From: Streptomyces venezuelae
GTDB taxonomy: Bacteria > Actinomycetota > Actinomycetes > Streptomycetales > Streptomycetaceae
DNA length: 64,000 nucleotides
Reading direction: 5' to 3'
Assembly (NCBI RefSeq): GCF_008642295.1
Contig: NZ_CP029190.1
Coordinates: 4,881,501-4,945,500 of the forward strand
Shown piece after piece: positions 6,325 through 41,136 of the stretch. Each line of letters starts with the position of its first letter. Position 1 is the stretch's first letter. Under the pieces are notes generated by a model. It saw only the letters and a list, made by a program, of their open reading frames with translations, was not told the DNA's origin and searched no databases. Made by a program: the position numbers and the translations under genes.

Positions 6325-7730
<1,406 letters not shown>

Positions 7731-7734
<4 letters not shown>

Positions 7735-15300: not shown

Positions 15301-18300
15301 TCAGAGGGTCTTGCGGTTCTCCGTCACCCGGGTGCGGAGCGTGGCCAGGGTCGCGGTCAGCGTCTCCTGGACCGCGTCCAGCTGCTCCTCGGTGAGCTGG
15401 TGGTGCTTGGTGTTGTCACGGACCTCCTCGGCGAAGCGGTCCAGCATCCGCTTCAGCCGGCGCTGCGCGTCCTTGGGGTCCTTCGGCTTGTTGCCGCCCC
15501 ACTGCATGCTGCTCTGGATGCGGTTGTCGATGTCCTCCTGGATCCGGGCGTTGAACTCCGGGCCCGAGTACTGCTCGCGGTAGGACTCCTCCAGGGTCTC
15601 CTTGAGCTGCTGTGCCTGGTCCTGGGCCTGGGCGCGCATCTGAATCACCGATTCCTTCGTTTCGTTCCTGATGGATTTCACGGTCTGCTTGATGGATTTG
15701 CCGAGTGCGGGCCGGCTCTTGGCCGTCGCGGGCTTCAGGTGCCCGGACAGCTCCGCGATGGTCGGGTGCTGGAACAGCAGCCGGATGGACACTTCCAGTC
15801 CGACGGTCCGCCGCAGCCGGCCGATGATCCTGGTCGCCTTCAGGGAGTTGCAGCCGAGGGCGAAGATGTTGTCGTCGATGCCGACCCGCTCGACGCCCAG
15901 CACCTCGGCGAACACCCCGCACACCGCCTCTTCCTGCGGGGTGCGGCCCGGCCGGTGGCCGGAGTCCGCCGCGGTGTCCGCGCCGGGCTCGGGCAGTGCG
16001 TCCCGGTCCACCGTCCCGTCCGCCGTCAGCGGCAGCTCCTCGAGCGTCACCACGGTGGCCGGCACCATGGGGTCCGGCAGCTGCTGCGCCGCGAACTCGC
16101 GCAGCTGCTCGGCGCCGAGAGCCGCGGCTGCCTCCGTACCGCCCGCCCGCAGCGGTACGACGTACCCGACGAGCCGGTCGTCGCCGTCCGGGCCGTCCGC
16201 GGGCCGGGCGACCACCGCCGCCTGCGACACCGCCGGGTGCGCGGCCAGCACGGCCTCGACCTCGTCGGTACGGAACCGCCGTCCGCGGATCTTCACCTGC
16301 GCACCGCCGCGCCCGATCAGCTCGAGCCGGCCGTCGCGGCCCCAGCGGGCCAGGTCGCCGGTGCGGAACATCCGGGCCCCGGCCGGACCGAACGGGTCCG
16401 GCAGGAACCGGTCGGCGGTCAGGGCCCCCCGGCCGTGGTAGCCGCGGGCCACCCCGCCGCCGACGTACAGGGCTCCGGTCACCCCCGCCGGCACCGGCGC
16501 GAACGACTCGTTCAGCACATGGAACCGCAGGCCGTCGAGCGGCTGGCCGAGCGGCAGGGTTCCGGTGCCCGGGGCGTCCTCGTCCCCGGCCGGCACCGTG
16601 AAGGCGGTGGCCCGTACCGTTCCGGCGGGGCTGTAGCTGCCCACCACCCGGACCCCCGGTATCGCCGTGCGGACCCGCCGGGCGAACGAGGCGAGCACCG
16701 GCTCGCCGGTGAGGACGACCGTCCCGGCCCGGAAGGCGCCGGCACCGGCGGTGCCGTTCAGCAGCCCGGCGAAGAACGGCGCGGTCGTGCTGATCACATC
16801 GCCCGACCAGCCGCCCTGCTCCGCCAGCGCCCCGGGATCCCGGACCACCTCGACGCAGGCGCCCCCGCTCAGTGCGGCGAGGATCTCGAAGGCCACCGCA
16901 TCGCCGTGCGGCGAGGCCGCCAGCAGCCGGGTTCCGGGCACCAGACCCGCCCCGGTGGCGAACCCGGTCACCCCCTCGAACAGCGCGCGGTGGCTGATCG
17001 CGGCACCCGCCGGCGCACCGTCCTGCTGCGGCGCCCGCCGCAGCCAGGCCAGCTGCTGCGGAGCGGAGGGCGCCGCCGCAACCGGGTCCCCGTCGCCCGG
17101 GACGGCGTACGGAGCGTCCACGTCCGCCTGGGTGAGCACCAGTCCGGCGCCCGCCTGGGCCGGCAGCGGATCGCGCTCCGGGCCGGACCGGCCGGAGCCG
17201 GTCAGCACGAACGCGGCACCCGACTTCAGCGTCGCCAGCAGTGCCACCGCGAGCTGAGCCGAGCGCGGCAGGGCGAGCCCGACCACCGCCTCCGGGCCGG
17301 CACCCAGCCGGACCAGGTGCCGGGCCAGGGCGTCCGCCCGGCGGTTCAGCTCCCGGTAGGTCAGCGACAGTCCGTCGGAGACCACGGCGACCGCGTCCGG
17401 GGCCGAGGCCGCCTGCCGCTCGATCAGAGCGGGCAGGGTGTCCCCGGGGGCCGGCGCGGCGGTGACCGCCTCGTGGTAGCCCCTGATGATCCGGTCGCGC
17501 TCGGCCTCCAGCAGCACGTCCACCGCGTCGACCCGCAGGTCCGAGTCGGCCAGCAGCTGCCGGAGCACCCCGTGGAGCCGCTCGGCGATGTCGTCGACCG
17601 CGTCCTCGGTGAACAGGTTGCGGTGGTACTGGAGGTTCAGCCGGACGTGCGGCTCGGTCTCGACGATCAGGGCGAGCGGGTAGTTCGCGGCGCCCTCCGC
17701 ACGGATGCCGGTCACCTCCACCCCGGCCGCCGCGGTCGCCTCCGCGATGCCCACCCGGTCCACCGGGTAGGACTGGAACGCCACCAGGGTGTCGAACAGC
17801 GTGTCCAGGCCGGTGGCCTGGTGGATCTCGACCAGGCTGTGGTGGTGGTGGTCCAGCAGGACGGACTGCCGGTCCTGGAGGCCGGTCAGCACCTCGGCGA
17901 GGGTGTCGCCGGGGGCGTACCGGACCCGCACCGGAAGGGTGTTGATGAACAGTCCGACCATGGACTCCACCCCCGGCAGCGCCGCCGGCCGGCCGGAGAC
18001 CGTGGCACCGAACACCACGTCCCGGCGGCCGGTGAGCCCGCCGAGCAGCACCGCCCAGGCGCCCTGCACCAGGGTGTTCACCGTGACCCCCAGTTCGGAG
18101 GCCTTCCGGAACAGGCTGCGGGACTCGTCCTCGGACAGTCCGAGCCCGGCCGAACCGGCGCCGGAGGCCTGCGCCCGGGGCGCGGTGGTCGGCACCAGCA
18201 GGGTCGGCTCCTCGACCCCGGCGAGCTCCTCCGCCCAGGCCTTGGCGGTCTCCGCACGGTCCTGCCGGTCCAGCCAGGCCAGGAACTCGCGGAAGTCGCG

Positions 18301-21279: not shown

Positions 21280-22679
21280 GGTCCGACTCCGATCAGTGTG
21301 GTGCCGACGCTGGTGATGCTGCTGGGGCTCTCGATGGGCAGGGGGTGCCGGGCGCAGAGCCAGCGCACCTCCTCACGGATCGTGGCGACCAGTGCGGGGT
21401 CGATCCGGTACTCGGTGTCCGTCAGTGCGGTGGTGGCCTTGAGGACGGTGTGCAGCAGCTGTGCGCACTCCGCCATCTGCTCCGGGCCCATGCCGCGCTG
21501 GGCGAGGATGTTGGTGCCGAGCCGCAGTCCGCTGGTGACCAGCGGCGGCTTGGTGTCACCGGGGATGCGGTTGCGGTTCGCGAGGATTCCGCACTCCTCC
21601 AGGGCCCGTTCGGCGATCACTCCGGTCAGGCCGGTGTCGGTGGTGTCCAGAAGCACGATGTGGTTGTCGGTGCCGCCGGTGAGGATCCGGTAGCCGAGGG
21701 AGGACAGTTCGCCGGCGAGGGCGGAGGCGCTCTCGACGATCAGGCGGGCCGTCTGCCGGAAGCCGGGTCCGGCCGCCACCGAGAAGGCACGGGCCTTGGC
21801 GGCGATCGAGGCGGGGCTGGGAGTTCCCTGCGACTGCGGGAACACGGCCCGCTGGATGAGCCGGCCGAGCGGGGTGCGGCCGTCGGGACCGGGCGTCTGA
21901 TACTCGCGCCCGCTCAGGATCAGGCCTCCGCGGGGGCCGCCCAGCTGCTTGTACGTGCTCATGGTGGTGATGTGGGCGAGGTCGACCGGGCTCGGGTGCA
22001 CCCCGGCGGCGACCAGGCCCGCGATGTGGGAGATGTCCGCGAGCAGGTACGCGCCCACCTGGTCGGCGATGGCCCGGAACCGGGCGAAGTCCACGGTGCG
22101 GGGGTAGGCGCTCGCCCCGGCGATGATGACCTTGGGTCGGTGCTCCCGGGCCAGGGCCTCGACCTGGGCGTAGTCGATCCGGCCGGCCTCGTCCAGGCCG
22201 TAGTGGACCGCGTGGTAGTGGCGGCCGGTGACCGAGGCCCGCGAGCCGTGGGTGAGGTGGCCGCCGGCGTCGAGGTCGAGGCCGAGGATGGTGCCGCCCG
22301 GCGGGACCAGCGCGGCGAGGACCGCGAGGTTGGCCGAGGAGCAGGAGTGCGGCTGGACGTTCGCGTAGCGGGCGCCGAACAGCTGCTTGGCCCGCTCCAC
22401 GGCCATGTTCTCGACCTGGTCGAACTGCTGGGCGCCGGGGTGGTACCGGGCGCCGGGGTAGCCCTCGGCCGTCACGTTGGACAGGGCCGCTCCACCGGCG
22501 GCGAGGACCGAGGGGTCGGCGATGCTCGCCGAGGCGATCATCGCGAGGGTCGCGTTCTGCTGGCCCACCTCCGCGTCCAGCAGCGCGGCGAGCTCGGGGT
22601 CGGTGTCCTGCAGGGATTCCCATCCGATGCGGAGGAGCTCGCCCTGTGCACCGTCCACCACTAGCTGACGTTCCATCAC
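21276..22679 (-). CDS. SHMT-like PLP enzyme with altered active site
   Basis: A 467-residue fold-type I PLP enzyme, clearly related to glycine/serine hydroxymethyltransferase along its length (AEGYPGARYH, FGARYANVQPHS, GGHLTHGS, GLVAAGVHPSPVDLAH, GGPRGGLIL). The PLP lysine is K244 in STYKQLGGPRGG. Several catalytic positions differ from GlyA: ASEN reads ASAS, the Tyr of NKYAEG is Thr (NVTAEG), the His before the lysine is Tyr, and SGSQAN reads SCSSAN. Clusters use such paralogues for alpha-substituted or beta-hydroxy amino acids or for transaldol reactions. It is the first gene of the NRPS transcription unit (ATGA overlap), so it probably makes or alters an NRPS substrate rather than serving folate metabolism. 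Confidence 0.85.
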   Translation of the reverse strand: MMERQLVVDGAQGELLRIGWESLQDTDPELAALLDAEVGQQNATLAMIASASIADPSVLAAGGAALSNVTAEGYPGARYHPGAQQFDQVENMAVERAKQLFGARYANVQPHSCSSANLAVLAALVPPGGTILGLDLDAGGHLTHGSRASVTGRHYHAVHYGLDEAGRIDYAQVEALAREHRPKVIIAGASAYPRTVDFARFRAIADQVGAYLLADISHIAGLVAAGVHPSPVDLAHITTMSTYKQLGGPRGGLILSGREYQTPGPDGRTPLGRLIQRAVFPQSQGTPSPASIAAKARAFSVAAGPGFRQTARLIVESASALAGELSSLGYRILTGGTDNHIVLLDTTDTGLTGVIAERALEECGILANRNRIPGDTKPPLVTSGLRLGTNILAQRGMGPEQMAECAQLLHTVLKATTALTDTEYRIDPALVATIREEVRWLCARHPLPIESPSSITSVGTTLIGVGP

Positions 22680-22811
22680 CAGTACCTCATCTCGCGCTTC
22701 CAGCGCCTCGAAGGGCTATAACTGCCCGTTGCTTGTGGACTGTTTCCGGCGGCCGGCGAACGTGTCAGGTCGGTTCGGGCCGGGCCGGCCGGGTTCGGGA
22801 TCAGTGGGTGA

Positions 22812-23600
22812 TCAGTGGGTGCGGTCCTTGTTGAAGTGGGCCATGGCCCAGAAGAAGCCGAGGATGGCGATGGCGAGGATCCAGGCGGTGGCGATCCAGC
22901 CGCTGTTGCCGATTTCGGTGCCCATGAGGAGGCCGCGGAGGGTTTCGATGACGGGGGTGAAGGGCTGGTATTCGGCGAACCAGCGCAGGCCGGTGGGCAT
23001 GGTGTCGGTGGGGACGACGCCGGAGCCGACGAAGGGCAGCAGGATCAGGGGGAAGGGGGCGTTGGAGGCGGCGTCGAGGGTCTTGGCGGCGAGGCCGAAG
23101 GCGACGCCGAGCCAGGTCAGGGCGAAGCTGATGCCGGCCAGGAGGCCGAGGGCGGCGAGCCATTCGACCGGGGAGGCGGAGGGCTCGAAGCCCATGAGCC
23201 AGGCGACTGCGAAGACGAAGGCCATGGAGGCCAGGGTCTGGACGACGGAGGAGATGACGCGGGCGATGAGGATGGAGGGGCGGAAGATCGCCATGGTCTT
23301 GAACCGGGCGATGATGCCTTCGGTCATGTCGACGCTGGTGGAGACGGCGGTGCCGAGCATTCCGGTGGCGGCGGTCATGATGATCAGGCCGGGCAGGACG
23401 TAGTTGACGTATTCGGCCCGTCCGCCGGATGGGCCGACGCCGGTGCCCAGGACCCCGCCGAAGACGTAGACGAACAGGAGCAGGAACAGGACCGGGATAC
23501 CGATGATCGAGATGGTGGTCGTCGGGTAGCGGAGCTGGTTCTTGACGTTGCGGCGCAGCAGGGTGACGGAGTCGGCTACGGCGAAGTTGACGGTGCTCAT
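22812..23600 (-). CDS. ABC-2 type transporter permease (DrrB-like)
   Basis: A 262-residue membrane protein with six hydrophobic helices (ISIIGIPVLFLLLFVYVFGG, VLPGLIIMTAATGMLG, VISSVVQTLASMAFVFAVAWLMG, LAALGLLAGISFALTWLGVAFGL, PLILLPFVGSGVVP, ATAWILAIAILGFFWAMAHF). EYQPFTPVIETLRGLL is the conserved end motif of daunorubicin-resistance-type permeases. Its start overlaps the ATPase stop by four bases (ATGA), so the two form one exporter. The position inside the cluster suggests export of, or self-resistance to, the product. Confidence 0.92.
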   Translation of the reverse strand: MSTVNFAVADSVTLLRRNVKNQLRYPTTTISIIGIPVLFLLLFVYVFGGVLGTGVGPSGGRAEYVNYVLPGLIIMTAATGMLGTAVSTSVDMTEGIIARFKTMAIFRPSILIARVISSVVQTLASMAFVFAVAWLMGFEPSASPVEWLAALGLLAGISFALTWLGVAFGLAAKTLDAASNAPFPLILLPFVGSGVVPTDTMPTGLRWFAEYQPFTPVIETLRGLLMGTEIGNSGWIATAWILAIAILGFFWAMAHFNKDRTH

Positions 23601-24586
23601 ACCAGGACCTTCTTGTCGGTGTCGGCGGAGGCGGTGGTGGTCTCGGTTCCGGTCTCGGTTCCGGTCTCGGTCTTGGTCTGGCCGGTGAGGGCGAGGAAGA
23701 CGTCGTCGAGGTCGGGGGTGTGCAGGGACATCTCGTGGATGGTGGTGGTGTCGAGGCGGTTCAGGACGGCCTGGACGTTCTGGGCGCTGCCGTCGGAGGG
23801 GATCCGGAGCTTGAGGTCCTCGTCGTTGCGGGTGAAGGGGACGGTCAGGGTCCGGGCCGCGAGGTCGAGGGCGTAGGCGGTGCTGAACTGCAGGTCGATG
23901 CTGCCGCCGGGGACCTTCCGCTTCAGCTCTTCGGGGGTGCCCTGGGCGACCAGCCGGCCGCCGTCGAGGACCGCGATGCAGTCGGCGAGCTGGTCGGCCT
24001 CCTCCAGGTACTGGGTGGTCAGGAAGATGGTGACGCCGTCGGCGACCAGGCCGCGGATCATCTCCCACATCGAGCGGCGCACCCGCGGGTCGAGACCGGT
24101 GGTGGGCTCGTCCAGGAAGATCACCTGCGGGCGGCCGACCAGGGTCATCGCCAGGTCCAGACGCCGCTTCATACCGCCGGAGAAGGTGATCACCGGCTTC
24201 TTCGCGGCCTCGACCAGGTCGAACTGCTCGATCAGGTCGGTGGACCGCTGCTTGACCGTCTTGCGGTCCAGGTGCCAGAGCCGGCCCATCAGCTCCAGGT
24301 TCTCCATCGCGTTCAGGAACGGGTCCACCGCGGAGAACTGACCCGTGACACCGATGCTGGAACGCACCCCGTCCGGGTCCGAGGCCAGATCGTGCCCCAG
24401 GACATTCGCGCTGCCCGAGTCCATCGTGGTCAGCGTCGAAAGGATCTTCACCGTGGTGGTCTTGCCCGCACCGTTGGGACCCAGCAGCGAGAACACCGAC
24501 CCCGCCGGGATGTGCAGATCCACACCGTCGAGGACCTTGTGCTCCCCATAGGCCTTGCGAAGACCGGTAGCCGTAATGGCCGTCAT
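23597..24586 (-). CDS. ABC transporter ATP-binding protein (DrrA-like)
   Basis: A 329-residue ATPase. Walker A is GPNGAGKTTT, the Q-loop lies in GVTGQFSAVD, the signature is FSGGMKRRLDL, Walker B is VIFLDEPTTGLD and the switch motif is LTTQYLEEAD; all match the DrrA subfamily. The C-terminal DrrA extension carries SLHTPDLDDVFLALTG, then a Thr/Glu-Gly low-complexity tail. AGGAGG-like bases precede the ATG at 24586. It pairs with the permease downstream as an exporter for the cluster product (inference). Confidence 0.93.
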   Translation of the reverse strand: MTAITATGLRKAYGEHKVLDGVDLHIPAGSVFSLLGPNGAGKTTTVKILSTLTTMDSGSANVLGHDLASDPDGVRSSIGVTGQFSAVDPFLNAMENLELMGRLWHLDRKTVKQRSTDLIEQFDLVEAAKKPVITFSGGMKRRLDLAMTLVGRPQVIFLDEPTTGLDPRVRRSMWEMIRGLVADGVTIFLTTQYLEEADQLADCIAVLDGGRLVAQGTPEELKRKVPGGSIDLQFSTAYALDLAARTLTVPFTRNDEDLKLRIPSDGSAQNVQAVLNRLDTTTIHEMSLHTPDLDDVFLALTGQTKTETGTETGTETTTASADTDKKVLV

Positions 24587-24949
24587 GACATTCCTCCTCT
24601 GAATGCTCTGGATGAACTGAACGAACTGGATGAACTGGATGCGGCGGCGGGTGCGGGGTGCAGGTCGCCGGTGGTGCCGGTATCGCCGGAACGGCGGGCG
24701 GGGAACGGGGAACCGCGCATTCGGCCGGTCAGCCGAAAGGCGATCTTTCGGTTCTTGCAGAAGACCACGTGGGCGGAATGGGCAACGCTCTCCACGATGC
24801 TCCCGGGAGTCATTACGGTCTGCCGGTCCGGCGCCGGCTGAAGAATTCCGACAAGCGGGCCGCAATCATCCGCGACACGACCAGGGCCGCGGCGCGGACG
24901 CCCATGTCGAAATTCGGCGAGAACTGCCGGGTTCCGCCGGAGGCGCTGC
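24587..24949. other. 363-bp spacer upstream of the exporter genes
   Basis: This gap lies between the ATPase start and the end of the piperazate-synthase-like gene, both on the minus strand. It holds the ATPase ribosome binding site, four tandem 9-bp repeats (listed separately) and a 23-bp stretch similar to the arginine deiminase 5' end (see findings). Open frames through it show no family similarity. Confidence 0.5.
24608..24643. repeat. Four tandem 9-bp repeats in the exporter leader
   Basis: CTGGATGAA, CTGAACGAA, CTGGATGAA and CTGGATGCG run head to tail just upstream of the ATPase ribosome binding site. They could be a regulator-binding array or part of the untranslated leader. The repeat is directly visible; the role is open. 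Confidence 0.7.
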
Positions 24950-25603
24950 TCACGGCAGGCTCGCCATGAGGGAGGCAGCCGCGCGGTGGCGGGCGCAGTC
25001 GCGTTCGCTGAACGACCGGTAGACGCGGTCGCGGATCTCCGGGGCCTGCTCCTGGCTGAGTTTGAACATCCCGTCGGCCCCGGACACGGTGAACCGGAAG
25101 GCCCCGACCTCCGGCAGGATCTGGCGGAAGTAGGAGATCGACTCGGTCATGTCCCAGTCGGCGCCGAAGTCGGCCTCGAAGGCGCGGACGGTGGACTTCA
25201 CCACGTCGAGGGTGTCCTCGGACGGGCCCGGCGAGTCGATCTTCTGGATCGTGCCGCGGACATGGACCGAGGTGAAGTTCCAGGTCGGAGCCGCCGGCGT
25301 CTTGCCGTACACGGTGGGCGAGACATAGCCGTGCGGGCCGGTGAAGGTCAGCAGAGCCACCTCGCCGGACTGGATCGCCTTCCAGTGCGGGTTGGAGCGG
25401 TTCATGTGCCCGAGCAGGGTCGCGCCCGCCAGGTCGGGGGCCCACTCCCGGTTGGCGTCGGGATCCGGAATCACCGGGAGATGGGTGGCGAACGGGCCTG
25501 CGAGGGGGCTGCCGTTGTGGACCAGCAGGGCCAGCGGATTGTTCCGGATCAGATCTACCATCCATGAACCGGACGGTTCGCGGTAGGGCGGTGGAACGAA
25601 CAT
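24950..25603 (-). CDS. PaiB-fold protein, probable heme-dependent piperazate synthase (KtzT type)
   Basis: A 217-residue FMN-binding split-barrel protein of the PaiB family: FVPPPYREP at the N-terminus, GPFATHLPV (His41), LLGHMNRSNPHW (His66), LTFTGPHGYVSPTVYG, PTWNFTSVHVRGT (His114) and the late GMFKLSQEQ. Automated annotation usually calls this an FMN-binding negative regulator. As I recall, the KtzT-type piperazate synthases, heme enzymes that close the N-N bond of L-piperazate from N5-hydroxyornithine, belong to this same fold and get the same label. The ornithine N-monooxygenase in the same cluster makes that the better call. It is divergent from arginine deiminase. A true PaiB regulator remains possible. 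Confidence 0.72.
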   Translation of the reverse strand: MFVPPPYREPSGSWMVDLIRNNPLALLVHNGSPLAGPFATHLPVIPDPDANREWAPDLAGATLLGHMNRSNPHWKAIQSGEVALLTFTGPHGYVSPTVYGKTPAAPTWNFTSVHVRGTIQKIDSPGPSEDTLDVVKSTVRAFEADFGADWDMTESISYFRQILPEVGAFRFTVSGADGMFKLSQEQAPEIRDRVYRSFSERDCARHRAAASLMASLP

Positions 25604-25809
25604 CGGTATTCGTCCTCTCGGCTTCGGGTGGTTCCATCTGCCGAGAACACTAACTACGCGTCTTTTTGAATCGTTATTGAGACGACTTCACGCCACGACC
25701 CCGGCCGGCGGCGGTGGCCGAAAAGCATTCGATAGCGAAACGGAAACAGGTTCGCCTAGCTTTCGGTGAAGGAGTTCTCGCTGCTCCGATGTCGAAGTCA
25801 GGAGAGAAC
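25604..25809. promoter_or_regulatory. Divergent promoter region of the precursor genes
   Basis: This 206-bp spacer separates the KtzT-like gene (minus) and arginine deiminase (plus). It is noticeably A/T-richer than its surroundings (CTTTTTGAATCGTTATTGAG), as expected for paired promoters. CGTCT and AGACG arms flank this core as a short inverted repeat. No specific binding site can be assigned. Confidence 0.5.
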
Positions 25810-27048
25810 ATGTTCCATGTGGATTCTGAGATCGGTGTACTGAAACAGGTCATCCTGCACGAGCCGGGTCTGGCGTTCGAGCGGCTGACCCCGGCCAACA
25901 AGGACGAACTGCTCTTCGACGACGTCGTATGGGTGTCCCGGGCCCAGCAGGAACACCGCGCTTTCCAGCAGGTCATGCGGGACCGGGGGGTCACCGTCCA
26001 CCTGCTGCACGACCTGCTCGCGGAAACGGTCAAGGACGAGCAGGCCGTCGCCTTCGTCCTGGAGCGCATCCTGGACGAGCGCCAGCCCCACCTGGGGCCC
26101 GCCCTGGCCCGGCTCACCGGCCAGGTGCTGTCCGCCATGGGCCCGGACGAGCTGGCCACCCACCTGCTCGGCGGCATGAACAAGCTGGAGTTGACCCAGG
26201 CACTGGGCGAGCGCTCCCCGAACGGCGTGCGCTCCCTCGGACTCGACCTGATGGCCGACGACGACTTCGTCCTCGCGCCGCTGCCCAACTCGCTCTTCAC
26301 CCGCGACACCAGCTGCTGGGTCTACGACGGAGTCTCGGTCAACCCGATGATGATGTCCGGGCGCAAGCGCGAGACCGTCAACTACGAGGCCATCTACAAC
26401 TTCCACCCGATGTTCGCCGAGTCCGGCGCGCACCGCTGGATCGACGGCGAGGCCATGGCCCCGGCCGCACTCGAGGGCGGCGACGTCCTGGTGCTCGGCC
26501 ACGGCACCGTACTCATCGGCCTCGGCGAGCGCACCACCCCGGCCGGCGTCGAGCTGCTGGCCCGCCGGCTGTTCCGGACCGGGTCCGCGCAGCGGGTGAT
26601 CGCCATGGAACTGCCGAAGGCCCGGGCGTTCATGCACCTCGACACCGTGCTGACCATGGTGGACGAGGACGCCTTCACCCTTTTCACCGGCCTGGACCGG
26701 CGCGAGCTGCGGTCCTGGACGCTGACCCCGGGCCGGCACCAGGTACCGGACGTCACCGAGAACAAGGACGTCTTCGACGCGATCGGGAACGCCCTCGGCC
26801 TGGACGCGGTACGGGTCCTGCAGACCCGTCAGAGCTCCTACGCCGCCGAGCGGGAGCAGTGGAACGACGGCTGCAACCTGCTGGCCATCGCCCCCGGCAC
26901 CGTCATCGCGTACGAGGTCAACGAGAACAGCAACCGGATGCTCCGGGAGAACGGCATCGAGGTGCTGGAGGTCCGCGGCGACCAGCTCGGCCGCGGCCGT
27001 GGCGGCCCGCGCTGTATGAGCTGCCCGATCGAACGCGGCGCCGCCTGA
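25810..27048 (+). CDS. arcA: Arginine deiminase
   Basis: A 412-residue enzyme that would hydrolyse L-arginine to L-citrulline and ammonia. Family motifs are complete: LPNSLFTRDTSCWVYDG, ALEGGDVLVLG, AFMHLDTVLTMVDED with the catalytic His, WNDGCNLLAIAPG and the C-terminal GGPRCMSCPI with nucleophile Cys402. The ATG at 25810 has AGGAG five bases away; an in-frame ATG at 25789 is the alternative. No carbamate kinase or ornithine carbamoyltransferase is nearby, so this is not the energy-yielding ADI pathway. The link to the DDAH-like and N-monooxygenase genes suggests precursor supply. Confidence 0.9.
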   Translation: MFHVDSEIGVLKQVILHEPGLAFERLTPANKDELLFDDVVWVSRAQQEHRAFQQVMRDRGVTVHLLHDLLAETVKDEQAVAFVLERILDERQPHLGPALARLTGQVLSAMGPDELATHLLGGMNKLELTQALGERSPNGVRSLGLDLMADDDFVLAPLPNSLFTRDTSCWVYDGVSVNPMMMSGRKRETVNYEAIYNFHPMFAESGAHRWIDGEAMAPAALEGGDVLVLGHGTVLIGLGERTTPAGVELLARRLFRTGSAQRVIAMELPKARAFMHLDTVLTMVDEDAFTLFTGLDRRELRSWTLTPGRHQVPDVTENKDVFDAIGNALGLDAVRVLQTRQSSYAAEREQWNDGCNLLAIAPGTVIAYEVNENSNRMLRENGIEVLEVRGDQLGRGRGGPRCMSCPIERGAA

Positions 27049-27203
27049 ACCGTGCTGCCGGCGGCCGAAACCGCAGCAATCCGAATTACCCGGCGAAACA
27101 CGATCAATAACGAAAGGGAAACCCCGCTCGATAGCTTCGGAAGAGAGACCGCAATCCGGCCACCCGGCTTCACGGGAGTCCCCCAAACCGAGAGGAAGAA
27201 CCC

Positions 27204-28040
27204 TTGTCCCAGCCCCAGACCGCCCGTCAGGCCACGCCCCGCCACTACCTGATGTGCCGTCCGACGCACTTCGACGTCAACTACGCGATCAACCCCTGGA
27301 TGGACCCCGGGAAGCCGGTCGACACCGACCTGGCCATCGAGCAGTGGGAGGCCCTGCGCCGGCTGTATCTGGAGCACGGCCACACCGTCGATCTCGTCGA
27401 ACCGGTCGAAGGCCTCCCGGACATGGTCTTCGCCGCCAACGGTGCGACCGTGGTCGACGACCGGGTGCTGATCGCGAAGTTCCGCCACCCGGAGCGGGCC
27501 GCCGAGGCCCCGGCCTACCAGAAGTGGTACACCGAGCAGGGCTACCCCGAGATCTTCTCCGCCGAGTACGTGAACGAGGCCGAGGGCGACTACATCGTGG
27601 TCGGCCGGACCGTGCTCGCCGGCACCGGCTTCCGTACCGACCCGCGGGCCCACGCGGAGGCGGAGCAGGCCCTCGGCGTCCCGGTGGTCAGCCTCACCCT
27701 GGTCGACCCGCGCTACTACCACCTCGACGTGGCGCTCGCCGCGCTCTCCGACACCGAGGTCATGTACTACCCGGGCGCCTTCGCCGAGGAGAGCCTCGCC
27801 GTCCTGCGGGAGCTCTACCCCGACGCGATCCTGGTCGACGAGGCGGACGCCGAGGTCTTCGGCCTCAACGCCGTCTCCGACGGCCTGCACGTATTCCTCC
27901 CGGAGACCGCGACCGGACTGGCCGCACAGCTGCGCGCCCACGGGTTCGAGCCGATCGGCGTCGACCTGTCCGAGCTGCTCAAGGCGGGCGGCAGCGTGAA
28001 GTGCACCACCCAGGAGATCCGCCACCTGGCCGCCTCCTGA
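27204..28040 (+). CDS. DDAH-like guanidine hydrolase (amidinotransferase superfamily)
   Basis: A 278-residue member of the guanidine-modifying superfamily, closest in pattern to dimethylargininase-like proteins of actinobacteria. Visible motifs are MCRPTHFDVNYAINPWMDP, LPDMVFAANGATVV, FRHPERAAE, RYYHLDVALAAL with the catalytic His, FGLNAVSDG and SVKCTTQEIR with catalytic Cys267. The start is TTG at 27204 behind AGAGGAAG. The family hydrolyses substituted arginines to citrulline, and some relatives convert arginine all the way to ornithine. Next to an ornithine hydroxylase, ornithine supply from arginine or citrulline is the attractive reading, but the substrate is not proven by sequence. Confidence 0.82.
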   Translation: MSQPQTARQATPRHYLMCRPTHFDVNYAINPWMDPGKPVDTDLAIEQWEALRRLYLEHGHTVDLVEPVEGLPDMVFAANGATVVDDRVLIAKFRHPERAAEAPAYQKWYTEQGYPEIFSAEYVNEAEGDYIVVGRTVLAGTGFRTDPRAHAEAEQALGVPVVSLTLVDPRYYHLDVALAALSDTEVMYYPGAFAEESLAVLRELYPDAILVDEADAEVFGLNAVSDGLHVFLPETATGLAAQLRAHGFEPIGVDLSELLKAGGSVKCTTQEIRHLAAS

Positions 28041-28045
28041 CCGTC

Positions 28046-28080
28046 AGCAGTCCCCCAGCAGTCCCCCAGCAGTCCGCCAG
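28046..28080. repeat. Short direct repeats after the DDAH-like gene
   Basis: The unit AGCAGTCCCCC occurs three times in tandem, the last copy altered, right after the stop of the DDAH-like gene and before the ribosome binding site of the N-monooxygenase gene. It is probably local slippage; no function is evident. Confidence 0.6.
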
Positions 28081-28117
28081 AAGTCACACCACACCTATGC
28101 CAGTGGGAGAGTCATCC

Positions 28118-29455
28118 ATGAGTGCTCGCGAACACGAGATCTACGACGTGGTCGGCATCGGATTCGGGCCGTCCAACCTGTCGCTCGCCATCTCCCTGGA
28201 AGAGCATCGCGCGAACGTCCTCACGAACCCGATCACCTCCGCCTTCTTCGAGCGGCAGCCCAGGTTCGGATGGCACCGCAACATGCTGTTGCCGTCGGCG
28301 ACGATGCAGATCTCCTTCCTGAAGGACCTGGTCACCTTCCGCAACCCGGTGTCGAGGTACAGCTTCGTGTCCTTCCTGCACGCCTCGGGCCGCCTCGCGC
28401 AGTTCGTCAACCGGCAGGACTTCTTCCCGACCCGCGCGGAATTCCACCAGTACCTGGAGTGGGCGGAGTCCAGCCTCAGCAACGTGGTCACCTACAGTTC
28501 CTCGGTCACCGGGATCCGGCTCCCCCCGGAGGTCGCCCACGACCGGCCCGAGTACCTCCGGATCGACGTGACCGACGAGGGCGGCGGCACCCGGACGGTC
28601 GACGCCCGCAACGTGGTCATCTCGACCGGCCTCGTCCCACGCATGCCGGACGGCATAGCGCGGCACGAACGGGTCTGGCACAGCTCGGAGTTCCTGTCCC
28701 GGTACGGCCGGACAGAACCGGGCGACCTCAAACGGGTGGCGGTGGTCGGCGCCGGCCAGAGCGCCGCGGAGATCACCAAGTTCCTGTACGAGCGCCTCCC
28801 GCACGCCCAGATCACCGCGATCATGCCCTCGTACGGTTACTCGGTCGCCGACGACACCCCGTTCGCCAACCAGATCTTCGACGCCGGGGCGGTCGACGAG
28901 TACTACTTCGGCACCGAGCGGGCCCGGGACGCGTTCTGGCGCTACCACAAGAACACCAACTACGGGGTGGTCGACGACGCGGTCATCCGGCACCTCTACG
29001 AGATCCAGTACGAGGAGGAGGTACGCGAGACCAAGCGACTGCACTTCCGCAATCTGACCAAGGTCAGCTCGGTGGAGCACACCGGTTCCGAGACCCGCGT
29101 CCACCTGGTCTCGCAACTGGACGGCCCGCAGCCGTTCCTGGACGTGGACGCGATCGTCTTCGCGACCGGCTACGACTCGCTGGACCCGAGCCGGCTGCTC
29201 GGCGACCTCGACCGCTTCTGCCTGCGGGACGAGTCGGGGCGCCACCGGGTGGAGCGCGACTACCGGCTCGTCACCACCCCGGACCTGCCCATCGGCATCT
29301 ACCTCCAGGGCGGGACCGAGCACACCCACGGTCTGACCTCCTCCCTGCTGTCGAACATCGCCGTCCGCAGCGGTGAGATCGCCGACTCCATCATCCAGCG
29401 CCGTGCCGAGCGGGAGCTCATCCCGGCCGGCGCCCTCCAGGCGGCCGACAGCTGA
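28118..29455 (+). CDS. L-ornithine/L-lysine N-monooxygenase (KtzI/SidA family)
   Basis: A 445-residue flavin N-hydroxylase that adds OH to the side-chain amine of ornithine or lysine. The FAD site is VGIGFGPSNLSLAISLEE, and substrate/flavin contacts lie in FGWHRNMLLPSATMQISFLKDLVTFRNP. The NADPH site is VVGAGQSAAEI, and VFATGYDSLDP plus THGLTSSLLSNIAVRSGEI close the protein. In siderophore clusters such enzymes feed hydroxamates, but no formyl- or acetyltransferase or siderophore uptake gene is present. With a KtzT-like protein nearby, N5-hydroxyornithine for piperazate is the best reading. The ATG follows GTGGGAGAG. A terminator follows the gene. Confidence 0.93.
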   Translation: MSAREHEIYDVVGIGFGPSNLSLAISLEEHRANVLTNPITSAFFERQPRFGWHRNMLLPSATMQISFLKDLVTFRNPVSRYSFVSFLHASGRLAQFVNRQDFFPTRAEFHQYLEWAESSLSNVVTYSSSVTGIRLPPEVAHDRPEYLRIDVTDEGGGTRTVDARNVVISTGLVPRMPDGIARHERVWHSSEFLSRYGRTEPGDLKRVAVVGAGQSAAEITKFLYERLPHAQITAIMPSYGYSVADDTPFANQIFDAGAVDEYYFGTERARDAFWRYHKNTNYGVVDDAVIRHLYEIQYEEEVRETKRLHFRNLTKVSSVEHTGSETRVHLVSQLDGPQPFLDVDAIVFATGYDSLDPSRLLGDLDRFCLRDESGRHRVERDYRLVTTPDLPIGIYLQGGTEHTHGLTSSLLSNIAVRSGEIADSIIQRRAERELIPAGALQAADS

Positions 29456-29674: not shown

Positions 29675-29893
29675 ATGGATTCCACAGCAGGAGCGGTCAT
29701 CGCCGGTTCGACGATGCTGGCGACCACCACGCTCGTCGTCACGGGGCTGGTCTGGCTCTCCCACAGCCTGCAGCGGGAGCGGCGTACGGAGGACCGCACG
29801 GCCGTCAAACTGCAGCGGGAGCTGCGCAGCGAGGTCGCCGAGCTGAGCAGCCGGGTGGGCGCCATGCAGCGTCTGCTGGAGGGGCTGGACTGA
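29675..29893 (+). CDS. Small single-pass membrane protein with coiled-coil tail
   Basis: A 72-residue protein: a short polar N-terminus, one hydrophobic helix at about residues 7-30 (AGAVIAGSTMLATTTLVVTGLVWL), then a charged heptad-like helix (QRERRTEDRTAVKLQRELRSEVAELSSRVGAMQRLLEGL). The ATG lies a short distance after GGCCCGGAGGCAGG. It has 200-bp spacers on both sides and matches no family I know. It could tether or assist the NRPS/carrier proteins at the membrane, or be unrelated to the pathway. Confidence 0.6.
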   Translation: MDSTAGAVIAGSTMLATTTLVVTGLVWLSHSLQRERRTEDRTAVKLQRELRSEVAELSSRVGAMQRLLEGLD

Positions 29894-30119: not shown

Positions 30120-30485
30120 ATGGTGGAGGCGACGCACATGACTGAGGACACGGACGAGTACGGCTACGCGGCCGACGGCCGCCCCGGCACCGACAGCGAG
30201 CGCCGGCTGGCCGGGCTGTGGGCCGGTGTACTCGGCGTGCCGGTGGACCGCATCCAGCGCACCGACAACTTCTTCGCCATTGGCGGCACGTCCCGGGCCG
30301 CCGCCCGGCTGGTGATCGCCTTGGACCGGCACGTCTCCATCGACGAGTTCGCCCGTACCCACAGCCTGTCCGAACTGGCGGACCTGCTCGACCGGAGGCT
30401 CGGCGTCCGGAGGGTACCGAGCGTCAGGGGCGTCGGAAGCGTTCGGAGCGTCACCGTCACCGCTGCCGTCCCGGCCATCGGCTGA
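30120..30485 (+). CDS. Free-standing peptidyl carrier protein
   Basis: A 121-residue protein with one carrier (T) domain at about residues 25-95. The phosphopantetheine site is DNFFAIGGTSRAAARL with Ser58; LAGLWAGVLGV before it and IDEFARTHSLSELADLLDRR after it complete the helical bundle. The last 30 residues are Arg/Val/Ser-rich and probably disordered. Two starts are possible, ATG 30120 and ATG 30138, each behind its own copy of GTGGAGGCG. No free adenylation domain lies nearby, so it must be loaded by NRPS A1 or an enzyme encoded elsewhere. It could carry an intermediate during tailoring. Confidence 0.85.
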   Translation: MVEATHMTEDTDEYGYAADGRPGTDSERRLAGLWAGVLGVPVDRIQRTDNFFAIGGTSRAAARLVIALDRHVSIDEFARTHSLSELADLLDRRLGVRRVPSVRGVGSVRSVTVTAAVPAIG

Positions 30486-30543: not shown

Positions 30544-31965
30544 ATGACCACCGTAATCGAAGCAACGGCAGCGGAGCAGGTTCTGGGCGGATCCCCCGAG
30601 GGGGTGCCCACGGCAGACACCGTCGACCCGACCGACACGCGGCTGTGGACCGCCGAACAGCGGGCCGCCGCCCAACAGCCGGACTGGCCGGTCCACGCGG
30701 CCGTGGACGTGGTCCGGTCGCAGCTGAACGCGGCGCTGCCGCTGGTCTCCGCCAACGAGTGCGAGACGCTCAAGGACCGGCTGGCCGCGGTGTCCCGTGG
30801 CGAGGCGTTCCTGCTCCAGGGCGGCGACTGCGCCGAGACCTTCGCCGATGTGACGGCCGCCGCCGTCCAGGCCAAGGTCCGCACCCTGCTGCAGATGGCC
30901 CTGGTCCTCACCTACGCGGGCAGCGTGCCGGTGATCAAGGTCGGCCGGATGGCCGGCCAGTACGCCAAGCCGCGGTCCCAGCCGACCGAGACCCGTGACG
31001 GCATCACCCTGCCGGCCTATCGCGGCGATGCGGTCAACGGCTTCGACTTCACCCGGACCCAGCGCATCCCGGACCCGGGCCGCATGCTGCGCATGTACCA
31101 GGCCGCCGCGTCCACGGTGAACCTGGTGCGCGCCTTCACCACGGGCGGTGACGCCGACCTCCACCAGGCGCACAGCTGGAACCAGGACTTCGTACGGAAC
31201 TCTCCCGTCGGCTCCCGCTACGCCCGCCTGGTCGACCGGATCGACCAGGCCCTGGCCTTCATGCGCGCCTGCGGCAGCAGCGACGAACAGGCGACGCGCG
31301 CGGTCGAGTTCTTCGTCAGCCACGAGGGCCTGCTGCTGGAGTACGAGCAGTCGCTGACCCGCGCCGACGCGGCGACCGGCCGCAGTTACGCCTCCAGCGG
31401 CCATCTGCTGTGGATCGGCGAGCGGACCCGGGACATCGACGGCCCGCACATCGAGTACTTCTCCCGGATCGCCAACCCGATCGCGGTGAAGCTGGGCCCG
31501 GCCACCACCCCGGACACGGTCATGAGGCTGGTCGACAAGCTCGACCCGGAGCGCGAGCCCGGCCGGCTCACCTTCGTGGTCCGCATGGGTGCCGGCACGG
31601 TGCGCGACCGGCTGCCCGAGCTGGTCGAGCGGGTGACGGTGGAGGGTGCCCGGGTCGCATGGGTGTGCGATCCCATGCATGGCAATACTTTCGCCGCGCC
31701 CTCCGGGCACAAGACGCGGCATTTCGACGACATTGTGGACGAGGTCACCGGCTTTTTCGAGGTGCATCGGGGCCTTGGTACGCATCCCGGCGGAATCCAC
31801 CTGGAGTTCACCGGAGATGACGTCACCGAGTGCGTGGGCGGAGGAGCCCGAGTGCGTTTCGGCGACCTGACGGATCGCTATGAATCCGCTTGCGATCCGC
31901 GGCTGAACCGTACTCAGTCCCTGGAACTCGCCTTTCTCACCGCCGAAATGTACCGGCGGCGTTGA
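30544..31965 (+). CDS. Class II (plant-type) DAHP synthase
   Basis: A 473-residue enzyme of the first shikimate step (phosphoenolpyruvate plus erythrose 4-phosphate). Class II motifs are plain: LLQGGDCAETF, PRSQPTETRDGITLPAYRGDAVN, SHEGLLLEYEQSLTR, GERTRDIDGPHIEYFSRIANPIAVKLGP, RMGAGTVRDRLP and VCDPMHGNT. Streptomyces normally has a housekeeping copy elsewhere; a second copy in a cluster usually boosts chorismate for an aromatic building block. No isochorismate, anthranilate, phenazine or aminobenzoate genes are present here, so the aromatic unit, if any, is unidentified. It starts about 60 bases after the carrier protein gene. Confidence 0.93.
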   Translation: MTTVIEATAAEQVLGGSPEGVPTADTVDPTDTRLWTAEQRAAAQQPDWPVHAAVDVVRSQLNAALPLVSANECETLKDRLAAVSRGEAFLLQGGDCAETFADVTAAAVQAKVRTLLQMALVLTYAGSVPVIKVGRMAGQYAKPRSQPTETRDGITLPAYRGDAVNGFDFTRTQRIPDPGRMLRMYQAAASTVNLVRAFTTGGDADLHQAHSWNQDFVRNSPVGSRYARLVDRIDQALAFMRACGSSDEQATRAVEFFVSHEGLLLEYEQSLTRADAATGRSYASSGHLLWIGERTRDIDGPHIEYFSRIANPIAVKLGPATTPDTVMRLVDKLDPEREPGRLTFVVRMGAGTVRDRLPELVERVTVEGARVAWVCDPMHGNTFAAPSGHKTRHFDDIVDEVTGFFEVHRGLGTHPGGIHLEFTGDDVTECVGGGARVRFGDLTDRYESACDPRLNRTQSLELAFLTAEMYRRR

Positions 31966-32003: not shown

Positions 32004-32735
32004 ATGCGTCTTGTCATTGCCGAAGGCTCCGCGATCCTGCGGGCAGGCCTGGCTCACGTGCTCGGAGACCGGGGTCACGAGCTGGCTGCGGCGGTCCACG
32101 ACGCCCGTGTCCTGCCCGCCCTCGTCGACGCCCACCGGCCGGACGTGCTCATCGCGAACGTCCGGCTGGCCCCCACCTGGGACGACGAGGGCGTCGGGGC
32201 GGCGCTGGCCGCACGCGGCGCGCACCCCGGCACCGCGGTGCTGCTCTTCTCCTCGGCGCCCGAACCGCAGCACGTGGCCCGGCTGTTCGCGGGCGACGGC
32301 TCCGGTCTGGGCTACCTGCTCCAGGACCGGATGACCGATACCGAGGAACTGGTGGGCGCCCTGTCCCAGGTCGCCGGCGGCGGTACCGTCGTCGACCCCC
32401 GGATGGTCGGCGCACTGGCGGCCGGCGCCGGCGCCCGTCCCGACGGCGGGGCGGCGACCGGGCTCGGGCTGCTCAGCGAGCGGGAACTGGAGGTGCTGAC
32501 GCTGATGGCGCAGGGCCGTACCAACAGCGCGATCGCGGAGCGGCTGATCGTTTCCGCCGGAACGGTGGAGAAGAGGGTCGCCGCGGTCTTCGACAAGCTG
32601 AACATTCCGGGAAGCCCCGGGGACAACCGCCGGGTGCTCGCGGTGCTGCGCTATCTCACCGACCGGCACGCCCAGACCAACACGATCGACTTCACCCGCG
32701 AACGCCGTCGGCGGATGCTGGAGAGGGTCGCCTAG
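32004..32735 (+). CDS. NarL/LuxR-family regulator with a receiver domain lacking the phospho-Asp
   Basis: A 243-residue protein with a receiver-like domain (1-130) and a LuxR helix-turn-helix at about 155-215 (LSERELEVLTLMAQGRTNSAIAERLIVSAGTVEKRVAAVFDKL). The phosphoacceptor position reads DVLIANVRL, with Asn52 where Asp is expected, and the acidic pocket is reduced to IAEGS. No sensor kinase is nearby. It is therefore probably an orphan regulator controlled by ligand binding or abundance rather than phosphorylation. Its place at the right end of the cluster suggests pathway control. Confidence 0.88.
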   Translation: MRLVIAEGSAILRAGLAHVLGDRGHELAAAVHDARVLPALVDAHRPDVLIANVRLAPTWDDEGVGAALAARGAHPGTAVLLFSSAPEPQHVARLFAGDGSGLGYLLQDRMTDTEELVGALSQVAGGGTVVDPRMVGALAAGAGARPDGGAATGLGLLSERELEVLTLMAQGRTNSAIAERLIVSAGTVEKRVAAVFDKLNIPGSPGDNRRVLAVLRYLTDRHAQTNTIDFTRERRRRMLERVA

Positions 32736-32857: not shown

Positions 32858-33676
32858 GTGCACGTGAACTTGGCCAACAACACCGGTGTCGGAACGAAAG
32901 CCACCCACCGTCCCGGTCCGCAGGTGTCGAGGCTGATTCCCCCGCAGCGCGCAATGCGCCCCGGACAGCCTGGAACCGAACAGGTACTCACGACGAGAGT
33001 CGGCCTGCAACTGCCGGTCGTCTTCACCTTCGAGGAATGGCAGCGGGCCGGCCGTCAGCTGGCCGGTGTCGTGGATTCGTCCTCGTGGTGGCTCGGTGAC
33101 TGGCTGGCGTACGGCAAGGACCACTACGGGGACCGCTACCAGCAGGGCATCCAGGCGGCGGGTCTGCGCTACCAGACGCTGCGCAACTACGCCTGGATAG
33201 CCCGCCGGTTCGAGATGGGCCGGCGGCGCGCGAAGCTGACGTTCCAGCACCACGCCGAGGTGGCCTCGCTGCCCGTGGAGGAGCAGGACCTGTGGCTCAC
33301 CCGGGCCGAGGAGTTCAAGTGGACGACCAAGCAGCTCCGGTCCGCCCTGCGGGAGGCCCGGGACGGCGTGGAGACGCTGCGCGAGCGGCCTGCCCCGCGG
33401 CGCCAGCTCGCGGTTCCGGCGGAACGTTTCGACTGCTGGCTGAAGGCGGCCGACCGGCTGGGAACCGACCTGGACGAGTGGGTCCTCGCGACCCTCGACT
33501 CGGCGGCCGAGCGGGTCTTCGAGGCACTCGGCCCGGCCGAGCCGGAGCCGGCCGCCCTGGAGGCCGCTGAGCCCGCCGCGGACATCGACCGGCGCATGGA
33601 CGAGCTGATCGACGAGGTCCGCGCCGAGGCCGCGGCCGAGGCCGCCGCCGACCGGCGCCTCTACCGGAGCCTCTAG
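32858..33676 (+). CDS. LmbU-family transcriptional regulator
   Basis: A 272-residue protein (GTG start). Its central domain matches the LmbU/NovE/HrmB family of pathway regulators: VGLQLPVVFTFEEWQRAGRQLAG, SSSWWLGDWLAYGKDHYGDRYQQ, YQTLRNYAWIARRFEMGRRR, LTFQHHAEVASLPVEEQDLWLTRAEEFKWT. This region contains a helix-turn-helix, and LmbU itself binds promoters in the lincomycin cluster. The C-terminus is Ala/Glu-rich. TTGACA at about 32765 may be part of its promoter. The family is strongly linked to antibiotic clusters, so this is the best candidate for a cluster-specific activator. Confidence 0.87.
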   Translation: MHVNLANNTGVGTKATHRPGPQVSRLIPPQRAMRPGQPGTEQVLTTRVGLQLPVVFTFEEWQRAGRQLAGVVDSSSWWLGDWLAYGKDHYGDRYQQGIQAAGLRYQTLRNYAWIARRFEMGRRRAKLTFQHHAEVASLPVEEQDLWLTRAEEFKWTTKQLRSALREARDGVETLRERPAPRRQLAVPAERFDCWLKAADRLGTDLDEWVLATLDSAAERVFEALGPAEPEPAALEAAEPAADIDRRMDELIDEVRAEAAAEAAADRRLYRSL

Positions 33677-41039: not shown

Positions 41040-41136
41040 TCAATTCCGATAAAAACCGGGCAAGAGAGGCTGTTTTCGCAGGTTAGGGTGTCGAGAAAAT
41101 GATCAAATGCAGCCTCTTTACGAGTAGGTGCTCTCT

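What the first reader, a model, noticed from the sequence alone, without database searches (positions are those of the whole stretch)
24950..29455. Candidate piperazate (N-N bond) pathway hidden behind a PaiB-like regulator annotation
The cluster pairs an ornithine/lysine N-monooxygenase (28118-29455) with a PaiB-fold protein (24950-25603). Piperazate is made by exactly this pair in the kutzneride pathway: KtzI N-hydroxylates ornithine and the heme protein KtzT forms the N-N bond. As I recall, KtzT homologues are routinely mislabelled as FMN-binding negative regulators. There are no hydroxamate-siderophore partners here. The pair sits with a small dimodular NRPS, an unusual size for piperazate producers, so a new small hydrazine-containing peptide is possible.
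Basis: partly seen in the sequence, partly recalled or inferred. Interest (0 to 1): 0.88.

Follow-up and report, generated by a model that had tools for sequence, protein, structure and literature searches.

The report
Half of a split piperazate cluster
A gene that looks like a regulator very probably makes the rare nitrogen-nitrogen-bonded building block piperazate, and its gene cluster looks like the precursor-making half of a pathway whose other half lies elsewhere on the chromosome.

Summary
24950-25603(-) is a KtzT-type piperazate synthase, not a PaiB regulator: 317 bits to solved synthase PipS, 75 to PaiB; it groups with solved synthases. 28118-29455(+) is KtzI-like. The Streptacidiphilus pinicola orthologue is almost surely SpPizS, active in vitro, product 'unknown'. 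But the 'new small peptide' is doubtful. The local NRPS has a dead second A domain in 6 of 6 orthologues. In S. pinicola it lies in one cluster with a large piperazate NRPS, hydroxy-acid module, thioesterase and P450s; in this genome that half sits 2.3 Mb away and carries a 99.7% identical copy of the window's ABC pair. The A-domain family of such NRPSs (DVFSFGAFYK) occurs in 43 of 44 KtzT-bearing and 0 of 348 other genus genomes, so it very probably activates piperazate. This genome has seven such domains in two distant NRPSs but one KtzT. Best reading: the window is the precursor half of a split cluster for a piperazate-rich, perhaps six-residue depsipeptide, and probably supplies a second peptide. 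Known chemistry, new variant.

The parts
24950..25603 (-). KtzT-type piperazate synthase, 217 aa; only PF04299 gene found in the genome
   Evidence: 317 bits to PipS 9ebk; 66% identical to PipS, 56% to KtzT
28118..29455 (+). KtzI-type flavin N-hydroxylase, ornithine inferred, 445 aa
   Evidence: 534 bits to KtzI 4tlx, 431 to MbtG (lysine), about 248 to other ornithine hydroxylases
25810..27048 (+). arginine deiminase family protein (arginine to citrulline, inferred)
   Evidence: PF02274 E 6.3e-114; NF002381 494 bits over cut-off 414; below the arcA cut-off (453 vs 489)
27204..28040 (+). DDAH / arginine-dihydrolase-like protein (ornithine supply, inferred)
   Evidence: NF045659 447 bits over cut-off 300; only solved relatives are Alr4995 and Sll1336 proteins
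15301..21279 (-). NRPS, partial C - A1 - T1 - C - A2 (degenerate) - T2 - tail, 1992 aa, no TE
19144..20682 (-). A1 domain, intact motifs, code DMYNLGMIHK
   Evidence: closest solved core FmoA3 6LTA
17488..18807 (-). condensation domain, HHVLIDG
15985..17439 (-). A2 domain, degenerate: no TSGSTG, A10 lysine replaced by Thr
   Evidence: nearest to the DVFSFGAFYK-type (piperazate) A domains
15736..15927 (-). T2 carrier domain, Ser kept (GCNSL)
15301..15732 (-). C-terminal charged tail, function unknown
21276..22679 (-). SHMT-family enzyme with Thr at the Tyr55 position; overlaps the NRPS start by 4 bases
22789..24603 (-). ABC permease (22812-23600) and ATPase (23597-24586); 1815 bp that are 99.67% identical to a copy at the 2.6 Mb NRPS locus
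30120..30485 (+). free-standing carrier protein
   Evidence: in S. sporangiiformans (65%), not found between hydroxylase and LuxR in S. pinicola
30544..31965 (+). extra class II DAHP synthase (one of three in the genome), possibly for an aromatic residue
   Evidence: 0 of 64 other KtzT stretches
32004..32735 (+). LuxR-type regulator
   Evidence: present in the 4 other ADI-bearing loci
32858..33676 (+). LmbU-family regulator
   Evidence: NF038070 223 bits; LmbU in 51 of 64 other KtzT stretches

Best explanation
The window holds the precursor-making half of a split biosynthetic gene cluster. Inferred: ADI and the dihydrolase-like protein turn arginine into ornithine. Strong inference: the KtzI homologue N5-hydroxylates ornithine and the KtzT homologue, a heme enzyme, closes the N-N bond to give L-piperazate. 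The SHMT probably makes a C4 beta-hydroxy amino acid (alpha-methylserine is my first guess) that A1 of the local NRPS loads. Piperazate is used by the large TE-ending NRPS at 2.58-2.60 Mb (four modules, three with piperazate-type A domains), with a hydroxy-acid module (A-KR-T), halogenase and P450s beside it. In S. pinicola both halves, apart from the halogenase, form one cluster. Predicted product: a cyclic depsipeptide of about six residues, three of them piperazate. The same piperazate probably also feeds a 6484-aa NRPS at 0.56 Mb with four such domains. How module 2 of the local NRPS works without its own A domain is open. Odds: synthase 0.95; hydroxylase on ornithine 0.9; A2 inactive 0.93; feeds the 2.6 Mb NRPS 0.85; feeds the 0.56 Mb NRPS 0.75; ADI and dihydrolase as ornithine supply 0.7; six-residue depsipeptide 0.5; alpha-methylserine 0.4.
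For: Synthase and hydroxylase. Tested orthologue: S. pinicola protein 59% to KtzT, as given for SpPizS, confirmed in vitro (PMC11705231, passages); one search found one such gene at E<=1e-60 in that genome. Piperazate A domain: family at E<=1e-135 in 43 of 392 genus genomes, all 43 among the 44 KtzT-bearing ones, 0 of 348 others; codes resemble published DVFSVASYAK, DVFSVGPYAK (PMC5031334, passages). Split: S. pinicola holds, in 39 kb, TE 67%, A-KR-PCP 62%, large NRPS 69% over 5437 aa, P450s 69% and 50%, small NRPS 58%, SHMT, ABC permease, KtzT, ADI, DDAH, KtzI, LuxR. Here the two halves each carry the same ABC pair, 1815 bp with 6 mismatches. Only one KtzT in this genome, none in the 0.56 and 2.6 Mb regions fetched. 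The other close hydroxylase (52%) sits by an NRPS with a DMENLGL-type code. A2.
Against: No activity, heme, expression or product data. NohD, a solved relative with another name, lies in the same unresolved branch and keeps the same checked residues apart from Ile154. The piperazate role of the A domains rests on co-occurrence and code likeness. The split rests on one assembly with a 1.8-kb repeat at both places; I could not check reads. The halogenase was not found in the 83 kb of S. pinicola fetched, nor DAHP synthase in 64 other KtzT stretches. In S. pinicola no ABC ATPase or free carrier protein was found at this place. A1 keeps only one (Asn) of the three FmoA3 side-chain contacts A688, N730, S760; it has Met and Gly at the others. 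Y55T in an SHMT raised use of D-serine, D-alanine being already accepted (PMC4761611), so the serine analogue is uncertain. A5 is partly kept in A2 of G239, G295 and P0003. ADI and DDAH each have a second locus in the genome.
Confidence: 0.8

Rival explanations
1. The 217-aa protein is a PaiB-type regulator or FMN-binding protein.
For: Pfam name FMN_bind_2; shared fold, and PaiB binds heme too (PMC13274692, parts 1-2 of 5 read).
Against: 75 bits to PaiB against 317 to PipS; 25-35% identity to four outside PF04299 rows against 50-66% to four solved synthases; conserved with KtzI.
Confidence: 0.03
2. The protein does another reaction on a hydroxylamine, as the solved NohD (named N-hydroxylamine dehydratase) presumably does.
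For: NohD sits in the same unresolved branch.
Against: 49% identical to NohD, 66% to PipS; the S. pinicola orthologue, almost surely SpPizS, makes piperazate in vitro (PMC11705231, passages).
Confidence: 0.05
3. One reading: the local NRPS alone makes a small (dipeptide-sized) piperazate peptide, piperazate being loaded on T2 by another A domain or taken free by the C domain.
For: Module 2 is nearest to piperazate-type modules and its C and T2 look intact; an ABC pair sits beside it.
Against: No TE in the local NRPS; S. pinicola keeps it beside the large piperazate NRPS; the split halves share an ABC pair.
Confidence: 0.12
4. The two loci are independent clusters that only share piperazate and an exchanged transporter; the local NRPS and the 2.6 Mb NRPS make different products.
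For: They are 2.3 Mb apart; each has its own ABC copy; the identical ABC DNA could be gene conversion alone.
Against: One cluster in S. pinicola with 69% identity of the large NRPS; a P450 also lies near the small NRPS in S. sporangiiformans.
Confidence: 0.2

Closest known systems
KtzI/KtzT piperazate pathway (kutzneride); SpPizS of Streptacidiphilus pinicola
   Same: hydroxylase and heme synthase pair; 56% to KtzT, 69% to the S. pinicola protein
   Different: here with ADI, dihydrolase-like protein, SHMT and a small NRPS, apart from the main NRPS
Piperazimycin-type hexadepsipeptides
   Same: recalled, from no call: three piperazate-type residues, alpha-methylserine, a hydroxy acid and one lipophilic amino acid, with hydroxy- and chloro-piperazate. 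The predicted residue count, SHMT, halogenase and P450s would fit
   Different: no piperazimycin cluster was compared; halogenase is of the tryptophan type; lead only
Lunaemycin and diperamycin clusters
   Same: KtzI/KtzT; LmbU gene next to the synthase and ornithine genes in lunaemycin (PMC9866976, passages); amidinotransferase proposed for ornithine in diperamycin (PMC10888640, passages)
   Different: there the piperazate genes lie in the cluster of the main NRPS; supply enzymes differ
Aurantimycin and polyoxypeptin
   Same: piperazate genes not identified within the cluster (stated in PMC10888640, passages), so presumably supplied from elsewhere
   Different: here the distant supply locus is identified and still carries part of the assembly line
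FmoA3 of JBIR-34/35
   Same: closest solved A-domain core to A1 (105 bits, next 75); activates alpha-methyl-L-serine (PMC11253843, passages)
   Different: one of three named contacts kept; Cy domain in FmoA3

Membership tests
KtzT-type piperazate synthase | closer to solved synthases than to PaiB | tested here: met
KtzT-type piperazate synthase | heme His61 and residues named in PMC13274692 | tested here: met
   9 of 11 positions as SbPZS, 177/178 as KtzT and PipS
KtzT-type piperazate synthase | ornithine N-hydroxylase partner | tested here: met
KtzT-type piperazate synthase | heme binding and cyclisation of N5-hydroxyornithine | not testable with these tools
   reported for SpPizS (PMC11705231)
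PaiB regulator | closest to PaiB | tested here: not met
   no Bacillus PaiB in the tree
NohD | NohD-like rather than synthase-like | tested here: inconclusive
KtzI ornithine N5-hydroxylase | KtzI best solved match | tested here: met
KtzI ornithine N5-hydroxylase | ornithine, not lysine | not testable with these tools
   MbtG second at 431 bits
piperazate-activating A domain (2.6 and 0.56 Mb NRPSs) | occurs with KtzT | tested here: met
   43 of 44 KtzT+ and 0 of 348 KtzT- genus genomes
piperazate-activating A domain (2.6 and 0.56 Mb NRPSs) | published piperazate code | tested here: inconclusive
   DVFSFG[AGS]FYK is like but not equal to the codes in PMC5031334
functional NRPS A domain (A2) | A3 P-loop and A10 lysine | tested here: not met
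   0 of 6 orthologues
alpha-methylserine-forming SHMT | Thr at the Tyr55 position (position mapped from recalled numbering) | tested here: met
   4 of 4 cluster copies, Tyr in the 3 other SHMTs of the genome; but Thr in 117 of 120 listed relatives, so it marks a large subfamily
FmoA3-type alpha-methylserine A domain | A688, N730, S760 | tested here: not met
   Met, Asn, Gly in the window; Met in 6 of 6 orthologues
arginine dihydrolase (ArgZ/AgrE, names recalled) | Asn71 and C-terminal Cys | tested here: inconclusive
   both align; NCBI model says dimethylargininase

The most novel reading that the evidence does not exclude
A depsipeptide cluster has broken into two loci 2.3 Mb apart, each left with a near-identical copy of the transporter. 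The window locus has become the genome's single piperazate source, serving two separate piperazate assembly lines, and its small NRPS adds a residue in trans to the distant TE-ending NRPS through a module whose own A domain is dead. The product would be a new, possibly halogenated, piperazimycin-like depsipeptide.
Probability: 0.4. Interest if true: 0.72.

Novelty: new variant of a known kind. Interest (0 to 1): 0.58.

Why it matters
Read alone, this window looks like a small dipeptide cluster and the 2.6 Mb locus like a piperazate peptide cluster without piperazate genes; read together they are one pathway. It gives a product-guided target for SpPizS, whose natural product is listed as unknown. 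The near-exact pairing of the DVFSFGAFYK-type A domain with KtzT gives a usable genomic marker for piperazate peptides, and the conserved dead A domain asks how a module works without its own loading.

Tried and rejected
The odds for a dipeptide were lowered for that reason.

Siderophore reading of the window: no partner in 40 scanned stretches. Tail search included the carrier domain and matched 372 of 392 genomes; only G239 matched the tail; repeated on residues 1840-1992 (3 proteins with the window's own; it did not list G239's, so it is not complete). Stand-alone A of G295 has no clear orthologue in the genome. Threonine transaldolase for the SHMT: no entry so named among the 60 listed of 88 solved matches. 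Structure prediction was not used. Literature: 10 searches. None held piperazic acid with arginine deiminase and nonribosomal peptide synthetase, with dimethylarginine dimethylaminohydrolase, or with hydroxymethyltransferase and NRPS; the strings DMYNLG and DVFSFGAF were not found. Piperazimycin was not searched for in the library; I only looked for the word in three fetched papers (0). Subscription journals are mostly not held.
Full report
What is there. The window is 4881501-4945500 of a 7,525,322-base, one-contig genome. G239 is of the same genus and its contig C248 (38,795 bases) has the length of the Streptomyces sporangiiformans contig, so the host is most likely a Streptomyces (inference). 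Minus strand: synthase 24950-25603, ABC ATPase, ABC permease, SHMT 21276-22679, NRPS 15301-21279. Plus strand: ADI 25810-27048, DDAH-like 27204-28040, hydroxylase 28118-29455, carrier protein, class II DAHP synthase, LuxR, LmbU.

The synthase. Against solved chains: 317 bits with 9ebk 'Piperazate synthase', 239 with 9jn4, 208 with 9kea, 197 with 9qlk, 156 to 131 with eight NohD sequences, 75 with PaiB 2ol5 and 9vyc. PMC13274692 (parts 1 and 2 of 5 read) names the first four PipS, KtzT, LnzB and SbPZS, under the same or a sister entry. On SbPZS numbering Tyr7, Thr38, heme ligand His61, Asn63, Asn66, Thr102, Tyr150, Ile154 and Lys173 are kept; 177 and 178 are Glu and Gln, as in KtzT, PipS, LnzB and NohD. 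Of four PF04299 rows from outside the branch, Asn63 is changed in 4, Tyr7 in 3 (gap in 1), Tyr150 in 2 (gap in 1). In a 78-row tree the protein is in a 64-row branch (99/97) with the solved synthases and NohD; 14 PF04299 rows lie outside. Cautions: the bootstrap had not settled, the root is a midpoint, some branches are very long, and the branch is mostly unresolved inside.

A tested orthologue. The genome-collection scan gave 6 loci. Streptacidiphilus pinicola (L005) has hydroxylase 69%, DDAH 76%, ADI 73%, synthase 68%, ABC permease 64%, SHMT 80%, NRPS 58% and LuxR 69%; no ABC ATPase or carrier protein was found there. Its synthase is 59% identical to KtzT. PMC11705231 (passages) gives SpPizS of S. 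pinicola, 59% to KtzT, confirmed in vitro, natural product 'unknown'. I did not compare accessions.

How common. KtzT relatives (E<=1e-60) are in 44 of 392 genus genomes and 21 of 297 family genomes, own included, samples overlapping. I fetched stretches around all places listed but a second copy in G208, and three named loci: 64 loci (some genomes twice). Within what was held: hydroxylase 50, LmbU 51, DDAH-like 14, ADI 4 (G239, G451, G343, G393, all with DDAH, LuxR and hydroxylase), SHMT 3 and the same NRPS 3 (G239, G295, G451), carrier protein 1, DAHP synthase 0. Dedicated ornithine genes beside piperazate genes have precedents in lunaemycin (PMC9866976, passages) and, proposed, diperamycin (PMC10888640, passages).

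The local NRPS. In 6 of 6 orthologues (window, G239, G451, G295, P0002, P0003) the exact string TSGSTG and the A10 lysine occur once, in A1; in A2 the lysine is Thr, Thr, Arg, Ala, Thr, Ser. K517 is called essential in PMC11253843 (passages). A1 reads DMYNLGMIHK in five and DMYNLGLIHK in G295. I recall threonine codes like DFWNIGMVHK; no call supplied that. C keeps HHxxxDG and T2 its Ser.

The piperazate A domain. Among 52 A domains from KtzT stretches, the 11 nearest to A2 outside orthologues are 41-46% identical; ten are of the DVFSFGAFY type. That sample came from KtzT stretches only, so I tested the family genus-wide: E<=1e-135 in 43 of 392 genomes, all 43 within the 44 KtzT-bearing ones (G339 is the exception), 0 of 348 others (4 candidates scored per genome). 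Published piperazate codes are DVFSVASYAK, DVFTVAAYAK, DVFSVGPYAK and DVFSVAAYAK (PMC5031334, passages). So the family very probably activates piperazate, and A2 is its decayed relative.

The other half. I read the codes of the 26 own-genome A-domain matches. Seven are of this type: four in one 6484-aa NRPS at 558.8-578.3 kb, followed by DFWNFGMVHK, and three in a 5447-aa NRPS at 2583.4-2599.8 kb, followed by DVCMVGVVCK. The genome has one KtzT. Its nearest other hydroxylase (52%) is at 6.50 Mb beside an NRPS with a DMENLGL-type code, which I take for a siderophore. Beside the 5447-aa NRPS lie an A-KR-carrier protein of 1299 aa, a thioesterase, a tryptophan-type halogenase, P450s, a TetR regulator and an ABC pair. 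That ABC DNA is 99.67% identical to window 22789-24603: 1815 bp, 6 mismatches, no further similarity around it. In S. pinicola one 39-kb run holds TE 67%, A-KR-carrier 62%, large NRPS 69% over 5437 aa, P450s 69% and 50%, then small NRPS, SHMT, ABC permease, KtzT, ADI, DDAH, KtzI, LuxR. S. sporangiiformans has A-KR-carrier 72%, TE 74%, halogenase 65% and the NRPS start 80% on C344, further NRPS on C347, and a P450 (53%) with the small NRPS and SHMT on C96; contig ends prevent joining them. So the cluster is whole in S. pinicola and in two pieces here.

Product. The 5447-aa NRPS has domains for four modules and a TE: piperazate x3 and one other residue; the A-KR module suggests a hydroxy acid and A1 one more residue, six in all. 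The SHMT has Thr where three other SHMTs of the genome have Tyr; Y55T in Streptococcus thermophilus SHMT raised D-serine use (PMC4761611, passages), and FmoA3, closest solved core to A1, takes alpha-methylserine, but A1 keeps one of its three contacts. Composition therefore resembles piperazimycins as I recall them; this is a lead, not a test.

Verdict. Known chemistry in a split, hub-like arrangement: a new variant.

Noticed in passing
own genome 558.8-578.3 kb (L233, L234): 6484-aa NRPS with four piperazate-type A domains and one DFWNFGMVHK domain, without KtzT or KtzI in the 56 kb fetched; an MMPL transporter and a lanthipeptide-type RamC protein lie beside it.
   Followed up: partly
window 15301-15732 (-): Charged tail after the last carrier domain of the NRPS, kept in G239 and two database proteins, shortened in G451, absent in G295.
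   Followed up: partly
window 30544-31965 (+): Third class II DAHP synthase of the genome (others 66% and 60%); with the tryptophan-type halogenase at 2.6 Mb it may point to a chlorinated aromatic residue.
   Followed up: partly
window 29675-29893 (+): 72-aa ORF with a membrane-like start between hydroxylase and carrier protein, read by eye.
   Followed up: no
window 6325-8762 (+): Type 2A encapsulin shell protein with cyclic-nucleotide domain beside a polyprenyl synthetase; a 75% identical stretch lies at about 589-591 kb of the genome.
   Followed up: no
window 38171-39427 (+) and 41128-42324 (+): Thioester-domain protein and ALF-repeat protein.
   Followed up: no
L076/L077 (G295): Variant cluster with stand-alone A domain, thioesterase, radical SAM/B12 protein, SHMT and the same small NRPS.
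   Followed up: partly
L073 (G568): Large NRPS with four A domains read as DVFSFGAFY, DVFPFGAFY, DVF-FGAFY and DVFSFGAY- beside KtzT, KtzI and DDAH: a likely poly-piperazate peptide.
   Followed up: no
L173 (own genome 5259545-5260372): Second DDAH-like locus, 60% identical, with one TGA inside the match.
   Followed up: no
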